A DNA stretch of 36,065 nucleotides, from positions 1 to 36,065 of the IMG/VR virus record IMGVR_UViG_3300035216_000705. The stretch is one strand, 5' to 3'. This document shows positions 1 through 14,690 of this stretch, piece after piece. This DNA comes from a virus. The notes beneath the pieces are model-generated. The model worked only from the letters and a program-made list of their open reading frames with translations, was not told the origin of the DNA and did not search any database. Numbering within the stretch: position 1 is the stretch's first letter; the number at the start of each line of letters is the position of its first letter. Position numbers and translations under genes: made by a program.

Positions 1-1706
1 TGGTTTCTACAAATGCATCTGGTGAATTAGGAAGATTTGATGCTGATGATAATTGGATAGTTGATACCTATACTGCACAATCAGGTGGTGATATTTTAAT
101 GGAGTCTACTTTAACTGGTAAAGAAACCGTTAGCGGTAAGAATGGTACAACTGGGGCATTTTTTAATTCATCCACAATTGCTTCAGTACATGATTTTAAT
201 GGTGTGTTAACGGAAGGTCGTGGTTTATATATGTCTTATAATTCTCCTGTGACGTCTGAAGGAACTAATATACTACAATGGCTGTCTAAGAGTAATAGCA
301 ATTATTATGGTAGTCATATTCAGACGGGGGGTGGTACTGCAATTTTAGCAACAAGATTTATTGGATCTAACATTTCACTTGCAAATAGAACAAACACAGT
401 AATTAATATTGGTCAAACAATAGGATTTACTGGTGCAGGAACAAATCCTCAGAGAGTAGGATTATATTCTAATGTTAAAGATTCACAAGTTAGTGCTAAT
501 GCTGGTACAATTATAGCAGACTTAATTGCTGATAGTGGTACATGGGCTGGTTATTTTGTAGGTTGTGTTAATATAGATCAAGGTGGATTAGTATTACCTT
601 CATCAACTTTTGCAAATAGACCGCTATGTAATGATGTGAGTGGAGGAAATATTGCACAAAGAACATTATGGATTAATGATGCTAACGGTCATTTATACCG
701 AGGGGTTGTTGATGTTGAAGCAACAGCAGCAGCAACTACATTAAACCAATTAACCGATGTAAATATTAGTGGAGTCCCAGCAGACGATAGTTTACTTGTA
801 TATAATTTAACTGGTGGTTATTGGGAAAATGCAACTTTAGCTGCTTATAATTTAAATGCAGTACAAAGCGGTAATGATGCTGACTTATCTTTAGGTGATG
901 GTACTTCATCAACAAGCGATGTTACATTTATTGCAGGAACTGGTATTACACTTCTTGTTGACTCTACTTTAGATACTATTACAATAGACTCTACTGGTGG
1001 GGTTGGTGCGCAAGGACCACAAGGACCGCAAGGTGCACAAGGACCACAAGGACCGCAAGGTCAACAAGGACCACAAGGACCACAAGGTGTACAAGGACCA
1101 CAAGGACCGCAAGGTGCACAAGGGCCACAAGGACCGCAAGGTCAACAAGGACCACAAGGACCGCAAGGTGCACAAGGACCACAAGGTGTACAAGGACCAC
1201 AAGGACCACAAGGACCAGCTGAGGCATTAGACGCAACACTTCTTATAGGTAATATTACTAATGGAACTGATATAGCTGTATCTGCTGGTGATGATATAAC
1301 ATTCACAGGGACCTCTAATATTATTGATGGCGCAGGAAGTGGTGGAACTGCTAATCAAACTACCCCATCAGTTTTAACTAGTGATGGTACTGCAATTGCA
1401 TGGAAAGATTTAATGGGTGCAGTGACAGCTAACACTGCAGCTATTGTTGAAATAGGACATCCGCTAGGTAATTATTGTAATATGGGTAATCCAAATGCTA
1501 CTACTACATATACATTTACAAATAATTCTGGTGGTTTTGTAGTTGGAGGATTCGGAAGAGTATTAATTAATGCAGCAACACAACCAATCGTAACTGGAGC
1601 AACACTTATAAAAGGGGATGTATTTTTAACATCTACTGATATGTATATGACTATTCAATATAATGGGCAAGTTACACAATATTGGTTTGAACAAATAGCA
1701 CCGTAA
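1..1706 (+). CDS. Collagen-repeat tail fibre protein, 5' end outside window
   Basis: Tail-fibre or adhesin protein of the virion. The reading frame is open from base 3, well before the first ATG at 99, so the gene is cut by the window edge and the true start lies upstream; about 567 residues are visible. Counting from the ATG at 99, residues 1-300 are Gly/Ser/Thr/Asn-rich with short beta-type repeats typical of fibre shafts. Residues 303-374 are 24 uninterrupted Gly-X-Gln/Ala triplets (a collagen-like triple-helix segment). A C-terminal head follows (375-535), ending in an aromatic-rich stretch. Glycine at every third position and proline-glutamine fill are seen directly; a trimeric shaft is known for collagen-like phage fibres; receptor binding by the C-terminal head is inferred. 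The next gene starts two bases after the stop, so the two are probably translated together. No chaperone-type peptidase domain is evident. Confidence 0.8.
1005..1220 (+). repeat. Collagen-encoding tandem repeat (27-base superrepeat)
   Basis: A run of 24 nine-base Gly-X-Y codon triplets inside the fibre gene. It has a higher period of 27 bases: GXQ-GPQ-GPQ with X = Ala, Ala, Gln, Val, Ala, Gln, Ala, Val through eight units, closing with GPA. The seventh unit is missing one GPQ triplet, an in-frame loss of nine bases that fits slippage or unequal recombination. The low complexity leaves two antisense frames and one further sense frame open, so apparent genes there are artefacts. Confidence 0.95.
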
Positions 1707-12123: not shown

Positions 12124-12178
12124 TGAAACAAAACCACTCATAATAAGTAAAATAATAAATACGCTAATACACAAGTAA

Positions 12179-12187
12179 TATATAATA
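12179..12187 (+). promoter_or_regulatory. Candidate late-promoter element (TATATAATA) in the longest gap
   Basis: Exact TATATAATA within the 92-base non-coding stretch 12124-12215, the longest gap in the window, ending 28 bases before the ATG of the S1-like gene. The rest of the gap is A-rich, with no hairpin or U-tract terminator. Its last 20 bases (CTCTTAAAAATAAAAAC) are an A-rich leader without Shine-Dalgarno, the sort of unstructured leader expected to suit S1-dependent or Bacteroidota-type initiation. Confidence 0.38.
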
Positions 12188-12215
12188 CAGATACTAACCT
12201 CTTAAAAATAAAAAC

Positions 12216-13355
12216 ATGACCGAACAAGAAATCACAATTCAATTAAGTGATGATCCATTTGATACAAAAAAAGTAAAAGTACAAGTTCCACAAGGAGTAA
12301 GACTTATGTGCAATGAAGTATATGCACCTGATGTATTAGCAATGTATGGATTAACAGATGCTACAATAAATAAATCTAAATTAACTGAGGATAGGATAGA
12401 TTATACTACGAGAGGCGCAATATCATTTATATCAGAAGACAGGAGTAGGGCACTGATTGATACTCAGTCTAAACATACGGCTTATTGTGTTTTAACAAAG
12501 GAACCAGATTTTATAGTAGAACAGTTGGAAGTTGGTATGGAAATTGATGTAAAAATTAAGACTAGTAAAACTGGAGATGTTATAGCATCTATTTCTGATG
12601 CCTTAATGGAAGTTAAGATGAAAGAAATTAAAGAAGCAATCGGTAATTCAGCTATTGGGTTTACTGCTAAAGTTAAAGAATTAATTCATGGTGGTTATTG
12701 GGTAGATGTAGCAGGTATTAAATGTTTTATGCCAGGTTCATTAGGAGGTTTGAATAAATTACATGATTTTAATGCAATCGTAGGAAAGGAAATAATTGTT
12801 ATGCCAATTACATTCTCTAAGGAAAAGGATACTATTGTAGTATCTCACCGAGAGTATTTAAGAACCATGATACCCACTACTATAGAAAATCTTAAAGAGG
12901 ATATTAAAGAAGAAAGAAGTGGTATTGTAACAGGCTGTACTAAGTTTGGTGTATTTGCTGAATTTGATGAATGCTTAACTGGTTTAATTCCTAAATCTGA
13001 ACTTACTACTGACTATATTAAATTATTAGAATCTCAATCTATTAAACCTGGTGATGAAATTAAATTTTGGGCTAAGGAAATTATATCAGATAGAAAAATT
13101 ATATTAAGCCAATTAGGACCTAAGGTTGATCTTTGGGATGGCGCTGATGAAAAATATAAACCAATGATGATTACTGAAGGTAAAGTTACTAAGTTAACTG
13201 CATACGGTGCTTTTGTTGAATTAGAAAAGGGTATAAGTGGATTAGTTCATAAATCAAAGCTTAAAAATCGCGAAATTGCTAAAGGTGATGTTATAAATGT
13301 TAAGATTGGTAGTGTGAATGTTAGTGACCGTAAGATTACTATGAACATTGTATAA
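12216..13355 (+). CDS. S1-domain RNA-binding protein (ribosomal protein S1-like, 4 repeats)
   Basis: Binds RNA through tandem S1 (OB-fold) domains; 379 residues. Clear S1 repeats lie at about 233-300 ('GIVTGCTKFGVFAEFDECLTGLIPKSEL...VKPGDEI'-type core, 'DRKIILS') and 318-379 ('EGKVTKLTAYGAFVELEKGISGLVHKSKL...DVINVKIGSVNVSDRKITMN'-type core). A more diverged repeat is at 147-211 ('FTAKVKELIHGGYWVDVAGIKCFMPGS', 'VSHREY' end), and a degenerate one at 64-128. Bacterial S1 has six domains and 550-600 residues, so this is a shortened relative. S1 brings mRNA to the 30S subunit and is a partner of some phage enzymes. Here, a role in translating or protecting late phage mRNA is inferred. It has its own upstream gap with candidate promoter and leader. 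Alternative roles: RNase cofactor, antitermination or transcript stabilisation. It is not structural by sequence. Confidence 0.88.
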   Translation: MTEQEITIQLSDDPFDTKKVKVQVPQGVRLMCNEVYAPDVLAMYGLTDATINKSKLTEDRIDYTTRGAISFISEDRSRALIDTQSKHTAYCVLTKEPDFIVEQLEVGMEIDVKIKTSKTGDVIASISDALMEVKMKEIKEAIGNSAIGFTAKVKELIHGGYWVDVAGIKCFMPGSLGGLNKLHDFNAIVGKEIIVMPITFSKEKDTIVVSHREYLRTMIPTTIENLKEDIKEERSGIVTGCTKFGVFAEFDECLTGLIPKSELTTDYIKLLESQSIKPGDEIKFWAKEIISDRKIILSQLGPKVDLWDGADEKYKPMMITEGKVTKLTAYGAFVELEKGISGLVHKSKLKNREIAKGDVINVKIGSVNVSDRKITMNIV

Positions 13356-13397: not shown

Positions 13398-14690
13398 ATG
13401 TACTCTAACGAACAATTAAATGCAATATACTCTTCCAAGATTGGATTAGAATTTGAATTCTTTGCAAATGAAGGATTAGATGAGGTTAAACATAGCCTAT
13501 CTAATACTTTAAATAAGCAAATCCGAATAGAAGAAAAAGCTCATAGTGAGTTTACTCCTACTGATGAAATCTTTAAACTAGAACCTGATAATTCAGGTGG
13601 AACTGGTATGATTGAATTAGTCACTGGCCCTATGCCTTTTGTTGAATCTAAACTAGTTATAGCAAAAACTTTAAAATGGATAAGAGAAAATGGATCTACT
13701 AGTGATAGGTGTTCCATTCATATTAATGTAGCATTTGATGGAGAAAAATTAGGAACTCCTGTTAATATTTCTAAATTAGACATTGGTAAGTTTGTTTTAA
13801 ATTTTAATGAGGAAAAAGTTTATGAAGCATTTCCAAATAGAAAAGATTCTGTTTATGCTAAGTCCATAAAGTTTATTGTCCCATTAAGTGGAATGACACA
13901 ACCTTCTCCAGAAAAAAGATTATGGAAAAATTATATGTTTGTAACTGAAAAATATTATGGAGTAAATTTTTCAAAGTTACCTAAGAATTATATTGAATTC
14001 AGATATCTTGGTGGAAAGGATTATGAAAAAAGGTATAATACAATATTAGATCTTACTGAACATTTTGTTTTATCTTTATATGATTCTTTAATGAATCCTT
14101 CTTATAATGAACAAGATTTACAAAAACTAGATAATCTTTTAGAAAAGCATAGAACAGTTATACAATCATATAAGGCTTACGATGTATTTAAGAAAAAATT
14201 TCCTGGTATAAGATTATTAGTTAATTTAAATACTAATGACCAGATAATAGAAACTTTTTATCCTAAGATGAGAGAAAAAATATTTGAACTTTTAACTAAA
14301 GCAGGTATGAAAAAAGGTTTAGTTAATTATGATTCTGATACAGGTAAACTACAAGTTAAAGATGCCGAATTAATGAGGTGTTATGAGTTAGCTGGTATTG
14401 ATATTGTAGATAGTAAAATACAAGGTAATCTTATTAAGTGTGATATATTTAATTGTGAATTGATAAATACTTCAATGACTGAGTGTAATTTATTTGGATC
14501 GTCTGATGCACTAGATTGTAAAATAGAAGATTCTTATGTAAGTAAAAATGTAATGTGTAAAGACTCATATGTTTTTGGAATGAGAGGTGTTTTTAGTGGA
14601 GAAATGGATGGTGGAATATTTAGAAAAGGTAGAGCCACTAAACTTGCTAGGTTTGAAAATACCGAAATAATTGAAATAGAAAAAATATAA
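13398..14690 (+). CDS. Amidoligase (GS-fold ATP-dependent COOH-NH2 ligase family) with pentapeptide-repeat tail
   Basis: Predicted ATP-dependent amide-bond-forming enzyme of the Amidoligase_2 (glutamine-synthetase-fold) family, 430 residues. Family-type residues are all present: Glu18-x-Glu20 on the first strand ('IGLEFEFF'), Glu73 in 'IELVTGP', His108-x-Asn110 in 'RCSIHINVAF', and Glu200-x-Arg202 in 'YIEFRYLGG'. These correspond to the metal/ATP-binding Glu and Arg positions of glutamine-synthetase folds. After a helical linker (about 215-330), residues 344-368 form five perfect pentapeptide-type rungs (NLIKC, DIFNC, ELINT, SMTEC, NLFGS), continued by looser rungs to about 420, a right-handed beta-helix module for protein contact. 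Substrate unknown: an amino acid, peptide, cell-wall amine or virion protein. It lies six bases before the next baseplate-region gene, so it is expressed with structural genes. The family call is strong; biological role unknown. Confidence 0.82.
   Translation: MYSNEQLNAIYSSKIGLEFEFFANEGLDEVKHSLSNTLNKQIRIEEKAHSEFTPTDEIFKLEPDNSGGTGMIELVTGPMPFVESKLVIAKTLKWIRENGSTSDRCSIHINVAFDGEKLGTPVNISKLDIGKFVLNFNEEKVYEAFPNRKDSVYAKSIKFIVPLSGMTQPSPEKRLWKNYMFVTEKYYGVNFSKLPKNYIEFRYLGGKDYEKRYNTILDLTEHFVLSLYDSLMNPSYNEQDLQKLDNLLEKHRTVIQSYKAYDVFKKKFPGIRLLVNLNTNDQIIETFYPKMREKIFELLTKAGMKKGLVNYDSDTGKLQVKDAELMRCYELAGIDIVDSKIQGNLIKCDIFNCELINTSMTECNLFGSSDALDCKIEDSYVSKNVMCKDSYVFGMRGVFSGEMDGGIFRKGRATKLARFENTEIIEIEKI

What the first reader, a model, noticed from the sequence alone, without database searches (positions are those of the whole stretch)
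12216..13355. Phage-encoded S1-like RNA-binding protein in a genome block that lacks Shine-Dalgarno sites
The gene codes for four S1-type repeats, two of them textbook. Around it, nearly all 24 visible gene starts have A-rich leaders and no GGAGG-type site. In Bacteroidota, initiation depends little on Shine-Dalgarno pairing and more on A-rich unstructured leaders (established knowledge). Inference: the phage makes a trimmed S1 that favours its own late mRNAs or replaces host S1 at the 30S subunit. The gene lies inside the late structural block and has the longest leader gap. An RNase-cofactor or transcript-protection role is equally open.
Basis: partly seen in the sequence, partly recalled or inferred. 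Interest (0 to 1): 0.72.

Follow-up and report, generated by a model that had tools for sequence, protein, structure and literature searches.

The report
Phage-borne four-domain ribosomal protein S1
A large phage that probably infects Bacteroidota, and all its close relatives, carry a shortened copy of the ribosome's mRNA-catching protein S1, probably to steer the host's ribosomes; phage S1 genes were already reported in 2020, and the missing Shine-Dalgarno sites turn out to be a trait of the host group, not of S1 carriage.

Summary
Window 12216-13355 (+) encodes 379 aa whose residues ~34-379 match bacterial bS1 domains D1-D4 in register, by sequence (E 3e-62) and by AlphaFold model; D5-D6 are absent and residues 1-33 are an extra N-terminal piece. 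It is a core gene: 71 of 71 loci fetched through a neighbouring gene carry it at the same place. It belongs to one old phage S1 clade (100/100) with 460-735 kb 'huge phages' and Lak phages, not a recent host capture. The lysine that anchors E. coli bS1 in uS2 (K43) is kept in 34 of 35 phage proteins. Leaders lack Shine-Dalgarno sites, but equally in related Bacteroidota phages with no S1 domain anywhere, so missing SD sites say nothing about S1. A TATATAA promoter-like element lies 37 nt before the gene and recurs before other genes of the lineage. Relatives also carry bS21 (8 of 11 informative S1+ records, 0 of 5 S1-). Most likely a phage bS1 that docks on the host 30S and helps late phage mRNAs initiate; no step after sequence is shown. 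Huge-phage rpS1 and its link to missing SD sites were published in 2020, so this is a new member of a known kind.

The parts
12216..13355 (+). phage bS1-like protein (g15), 379 aa
12216..12314 (+). residues 1-33: N-terminal extension with a predicted beta hairpin (res. 2-24), not present in bS1
   Evidence: AlphaFold secondary structure; structural alignment with 30S-bound bS1 starts at residue 33-36
12315..12404 (+). residues 34-63: helices; the first superposes on the start of the uS2-binding N-terminal helix of bS1
12405..12620 (+). residues 64-135: D1 (30S-docking OB fold), with K86 = E. coli K43
12651..12857 (+). residues 146-214: D2, the most conserved domain of the clade; Y161 and F171 = E. 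coli F120 and F130
12909..13115 (+). residues 232-300: D3 RNA-binding S1 domain (F244, F247 kept; canonical His is Pro259)
13155..13352 (+). residues 314-379: D4 RNA-binding S1 domain (Y330, F333, H345 kept)
12177..12186 (+). AATATATAAT, late-promoter-like element; TATATAA starts 37 nt before the S1 ATG and recurs before g05, g09, g14 and g16
12187..12215 (+). probable mRNA leader, A-rich, predicted unstructured (MFE 0)

Best explanation
The gene encodes a phage version of ribosomal protein bS1 cut down to D1-D4. It is made with the late structural proteins from its own late-type promoter. D1 and D2 dock it on uS2 of the host 30S subunit next to, or in place of, host bS1; D3 and D4 hold A-rich, unstructured leaders and raise initiation on abundant late phage mRNAs. 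Shown: homology and domain order, conservation of the uS2-anchor lysine and the OB2 aromatic residue, core status and fixed position in the lineage, purifying selection, a shared promoter-like element, co-occurrence with bS21 in relatives. Inferred: late timing, 30S binding, displacement of host bS1, preference for phage mRNA.
For: A profile of phage S1s matches E. coli bS1 11-345 in register, and the model superposes on bS1 in the 30S mRNA delivery complex (9guv_B, Z 14.8, residues 34-379 on 1-347, rmsd 15.1 because the domains are flexibly linked) and on D1-D2 in the 30S PIC (9guq_B, Z 11.5, 169 residues, 3.7 A). K43, which inserts into uS2 (PMC10123108), is K in 34 of 35 phage S1s and 39 of 39 bacterial ones; F130 is F in 35 of 35. 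D1-D3 are essential for E. coli viability and mRNA accommodation, D4 adds activity, D5-D6 are dispensable (PMC3858243), which fits the phage's cut. In F. johnsoniae bS1 gave a 2-fold higher amplitude on an SD-less mRNA (PMC9976891) and D4 is placed to meet mRNA nt -12 to -15 (PMC6847099). Core gene: 71 of 71 neighbour-fetched loci. dN/dS median 0.13, like structural neighbours at 0.08-0.17. TATATAA before starts: 60 of 217 against 14.6 +/- 3.6 in shuffles, at -20 to -40. bS21, bS1's neighbour on the platform, in 8 of 11 informative S1+ records and 0 of 5 S1-.
Against: No experiment shows 30S binding or any effect on translation. Identity to host bS1 is only ~20-25% and the branch to bacterial bS1 is very long, so function may have drifted. 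E. coli F5/F9 of the docking helix are not clearly kept (V40/Y44 by alignment). K117 of OB2 is His, and the canonical His of D3 is Pro in the window's lineage. S1-less Bacteroidota myophages with the same kind of leaders do without it. The promoter motif is a statistical element, not a mapped start.
Confidence: 0.6

Rival explanations
1. The protein acts off the ribosome as an RNA chaperone or transcript protector: D3-D4 coat A-rich phage mRNAs, or it acts with a nuclease as host S1 does with T4 RegB.
For: D3-D4 carry most canonical RNA-binding residues; the S1 fold is shared with RNase R, PNPase and Tex; host S1 has a RegB cofactor role in T4 (PMC9409239, listed; also summarised).
Against: Conservation is highest in D2, and the uS2-anchor lysine in D1 is nearly invariant, which a pure RNA binder would not need. 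No nuclease domain is fused. A RegB search found none but had no positive control, so it is inconclusive.
Confidence: 0.22
2. It blocks host translation: a dominant-negative S1 lacking D5-D6 that displaces host bS1 and shuts off host mRNAs rather than helping phage ones.
For: Loss of D5-D6 and divergence in some RNA-contact residues.
Against: E. coli bS1 without D5-D6 is viable and still forms initiation complexes (PMC3858243); RNA faces of D3 and D4 are mostly kept.
Confidence: 0.1
3. It is a virion or tail-assembly protein, or is packaged and injected, since it lies among baseplate genes.
For: Fixed place between a spike-like gene (g13, plus small g14) and g16-g19, which include head-tail adaptor and baseplate wedge homologues.
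Against: In Mahaphages and Lak the S1 gene lies elsewhere, away from these genes, and the whole 34-379 stretch is bS1-like. It has its own promoter-like element.
Confidence: 0.08

Closest known systems
rpS1 of huge phages (Al-Shayeb et al. 2020, PMC7162821), incl. LR756500, LR745206, LR756501-04, and the Prevotella Lak phages
   Same: Same S1 clade (100/100), leaders without SD sites, same proposed role in initiation
   Different: The window's lineage has the gene at a fixed place in the tail block (shared only with LR756500); D4 present (absent in Lak); Pro in place of the D3 His; an N-terminal hairpin
Cellular bS1 (E. coli rpsA; Flavobacterium rpsA)
   Same: D1-D4 in register; K43 and F130 equivalents kept
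   Different: 20-25% identity, no D5-D6, extra N-terminal residues, separate phage clade
Phage-encoded bS21 of Bacteroidota phages (Chen et al. 2022, PMC9723584)
   Same: Ribosomal platform protein encoded near structural genes; proposed late-stage takeover of initiation
   Different: Different protein; in the window's relatives bS21 lies 18-26 kb upstream on the same strand and is not in the window
PhiMa05 cyanophage bS1 (PMC13157829)
   Same: Phage-encoded bS1
   Different: Reported there as acquired from a Vampirovibrio-like host together with other ribosomal proteins; its sequence was not compared here

Membership tests
bacterial bS1 (rpsA) | Tandem S1/OB domains in bS1 order with docking D1-D2 then RNA-binding D3-D4 | tested here: met
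bacterial bS1 (rpsA) | Curated NCBIfam rpsA equivalog cut-off (577 bits) | tested here: not met
   123.8 bits; but several Bacteroidota bS1 also miss it, e.g. Flavobacterium at 543, so it is a poor criterion
bacterial bS1 (rpsA) | Six domains D1-D6 as in E. coli | tested here: not met
   ends at D4; stop codon at 13353-13355
bacterial bS1 (rpsA) | uS2 anchor lysine (E. coli K43) | tested here: met
   K86; K in 34 of 35 phage S1s
bacterial bS1 (rpsA) | uS2-stacking Phe5/Phe9 of the N-terminal helix | tested here: inconclusive
   aligned V40/Y44, helix present in the model; many Bacteroidota bS1 also lack Phe there
bacterial bS1 (rpsA) | Binds 30S and mRNA, aids initiation | not testable with these tools
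   needs biochemistry
huge-phage rpS1 clade | One clade with LR and Lak S1 proteins, apart from bacterial bS1 | tested here: met
   100/100 support, 18 rows; long branches, so depth is unsure
huge-phage rpS1 clade | Genome rarely has SD sites (as published) | tested here: met
   9% of window starts against 5% in shuffles; not distinctive, since five S1-less Bacteroidota myophages show the same
RNase R / PNPase / Tex-type S1 proteins | S1 domain fused to a catalytic or Tex core | tested here: not met
   no other domain in Pfam or NCBIfam scans

The most novel reading that the evidence does not exclude
These phages bring a two-part kit, bS1 (D1-D4) plus bS21, that remakes the 30S platform of Bacteroidota ribosomes late in infection into a phage-specific ribosome, inherited together through a phage lineage spanning genomes of at least 180 up to 735 kb.
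Probability: 0.25. Interest if true: 0.75.

Novelty: new member of a known kind. Interest (0 to 1): 0.42.

Why it matters
How SD-blind Bacteroidota ribosomes pick start sites is open, and bS1 is a main suspect. A phage lineage that never loses its own minimal bS1 gives a natural D1-D4 construct for testing this. The comparison with S1-less relatives also corrects a published inference: missing SD sites in S1-bearing phages reflect their hosts.

Tried and rejected
Structured autoregulatory leader as in E. coli rpsA: the 122-nt region folds no better than shuffles (MFE 0) and Rfam finds nothing in the window. RegB partner: no match, but no control rang, so inconclusive. Recent host capture: not supported by the tree, with the caveat of long branches. 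Long leader: the 92-nt gap contains a promoter-like element, so the leader is probably short. Phenylalanines of the docking helix: alignment in this region is too weak to decide. PHROGs has no informative family for this protein. INPHARED matches in small 'Escherichia/Listeria/Enterococcus phage' records may be bacterial contamination and were not used. Residues 1-33 were not folded or searched alone, so the origin of the N-terminal piece is open.

Full report
WHAT IS THERE. The ORF at 12216-13355 (+) is intact, 379 aa, starting with ATG. Pfam sees two S1 domains at E 2.9e-22. NCBIfam's ribosomal S1 models align almost the whole protein, residues 73-378, at E down to 5e-43, though under their curated cut-offs. 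A profile of 15 phage relatives matches E. coli bS1 residues 11-345 with E 3e-62, in register D1-D4. D5 and D6 are absent. An AlphaFold model from 41 sequences (mean pLDDT 80.5, pTM 0.52, as expected for flexibly linked domains) shows a hairpin (2-24), two helices (36-58) and four OB folds. Its best solved matches are bS1 chains of the 30S mRNA delivery complex: residues 34-379 on bS1 1-347 (Z 14.8, 322 residues, 15.1 A because the linkers differ), and D1-D2 on the 30S pre-initiation complex (Z 11.5, 169 residues, 3.7 A). So residues ~34-379 are bS1 D1-D4, and ~33 N-terminal residues are an addition.

SURROUNDINGS. The window is a 36 kb virus record with contractile-tail genes: g13 baseplate/spike-like, g17 head-tail adaptor-like, g19 baseplate wedge-like. 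In 43 IMG/VR relatives (51-87% identity) and in the 462 kb LR756500 (42%) the S1 gene lies between g13 and g16, wherever the contig reaches that far. To avoid searching only for what carries S1, I fetched relatives by g17: of 71 loci with at least 2.6 kb upstream, all 71 have S1, nearly all 2.4-2.6 kb upstream. It is therefore a core gene. Median dN/dS is 0.13, against 0.08-0.17 for neighbours. In Mahaphages and Lak the gene lies elsewhere.

DESCENT. A tree of 18 phage S1s, 39 bS1s from Bacteroidota and related groups, and E. coli puts all phage proteins in one clade (100/100) on a long stem. The clade holds the window's lineage, LR756500, four 635-735 kb phages and Lak. This argues for one old acquisition and vertical descent; long branches mean the depth and the donor are not resolved.

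FUNCTIONAL RESIDUES. E. coli bS1 docks on uS2 with F5/F9 of its N-terminal helix and K43 of D1, and OB2 residues K117, F120 and F130 face the mRNA (PMC10123108). K43 is K86 here, and K in 34 of 35 distinct phage proteins and in all 39 bacterial ones; F130 is F171 in 35 of 35; F120 is Y or F in all 35, where Bacteroidota bS1 mostly has Met; K117 is His in 30 of 35. D4 keeps Y330, F333 and H345; D3 keeps F244 and F247, but its His is Pro in the window's lineage. D2 is the most conserved domain. Docking residues are thus kept at least as well as RNA contacts, which favours action on the ribosome.

SHINE-DALGARNO. With one ORF and leader pipeline for all, the share of starts with an SD-like 4-mer is 0.00-0.09 in S1-bearing phages, 0.02 in five S1-less Bacteroidota myophages taken together (pT24, PTm1, PAU, MaF61, MA9V-1), 0.03 in Flavobacteriia genes and 0.39 in a Rhizobium phage; shuffles give 0.01-0.05, and 0.13 for the Rhizobium phage. 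A content of the last 20 nt is 0.49-0.56 in S1+ phages, 0.47-0.55 in S1- phages, 0.42 in host genes. The five S1- genomes, searched whole, have no S1 domain. So SD-lessness follows the host group (known: anti-SD occlusion by bS21, bS18 and bS6, PMC9976891) and cannot be used as evidence for an S1 role. The 2020 paper drew that inference from a correlation among phages of many hosts (PMC7162821); the comparison within Bacteroidota phages removes this support, though not the possibility of the role. That PAU infects a member of Bacteroidota rests on its leaders and relatives; its record names Sphingomonas.

EXPRESSION. The 92-nt gap before S1 holds TAATATATAATCTA-like sequence in nearly all of 28 distinct leaders. 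TATATAA occurs within 60 nt of 60 of 217 starts in the lineage, against 14.6 +/- 3.6 in dinucleotide shuffles, almost all at -20 to -40; S1-less phages show no excess (7 against 6.5). It resembles the single-box late promoters of T4-like phages (own knowledge; not tested). In the window it precedes g05, g09, g14, S1 and g16. If it is the promoter, the S1 leader is ~25 nt, A-rich and unstructured.

PARTNERS. bS21 is present in 8 S1+ records and in none of the 5 S1- genomes. Among lineage contigs with at least 22 kb upstream it is found in 4 of 5, 18-26 kb upstream on the same strand (positions); the window does not reach that far. With all six huge phages, 8 of 11 informative S1+ records have it; the chance of 0 of 5 among S1- is 0.013 if records were independent, which they are not. 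Phage bS21 in Bacteroidota phages and its late expression are known (PMC9723584).

MECHANISM. Established: in E. coli D1-D3 are the essential core, D4 stimulates, D5-D6 are dispensable (PMC3858243); F. johnsoniae bS1 raised the initiation amplitude on an SD-less mRNA two-fold. Inferred: the phage protein docks through D1-D2, holds A-rich leaders with D3-D4 and supports the burst of late structural proteins. Whether it displaces host bS1, and whether it prefers phage leaders, is unknown; host and phage leaders are alike in kind, so selectivity may come from amount and timing.

VERDICT. Real, conserved and probably ribosome-directed; the kind is known (phage rpS1). New here: the unbiased core status, the single old clade, the conserved uS2 lysine, the N-terminal extension, the promoter-like element, the bS21 co-occurrence, and the removal of the SD argument.

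Noticed in passing
L180 (LR756501.1 541500-545000), just before the bS21 ORF: The bS21 gene of the 735 kb phage has a strong SD (AAAGGAGG, a few nt before ATG) although SD sites are rare in its group, as host rpsU does in Flavobacteriales, where it serves bS21 autoregulation. The other seven phage bS21 leaders read do not show it near the start.
   Followed up: partly
window 3872, 5547, 11804, 12178, 13374 (+): ATATATAA elements 21-38 nt before gene starts; strongly enriched across the lineage, a candidate late promoter.
   Followed up: partly
L175 and L176, just before the bS21 ORF: bS21 directly follows what looks like a tRNA 3' end in two relatives.
   Followed up: no
LR756502 71423-71671, LR745206 195391-195630, LR756504 449287-449496: Second S1-domain proteins in frames of ~600-646 aa, perhaps RNase-type enzymes.
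   Followed up: no
L035 10001-10408: The S1 frame breaks after 135 codons in one contig, with the rest matching from +353: sequencing error or a rare broken copy.
   Followed up: no
window 13398-14690 (g16): Conserved 430-aa protein next to S1, present in all six LR huge-phage records and weakly in Agrobacterium phage Atu_ph07, with no Pfam match.
   Followed up: partly
window ~969-1211 (+): Collagen-like GPQGPQ repeats in the first tail-fibre-like protein.
   Followed up: no
L026 and L034 S1, before the D1 lysine (columns 96-107): A subgroup has an ~11-residue insertion in a D1 loop close to the uS2-anchor lysine.
   Followed up: no
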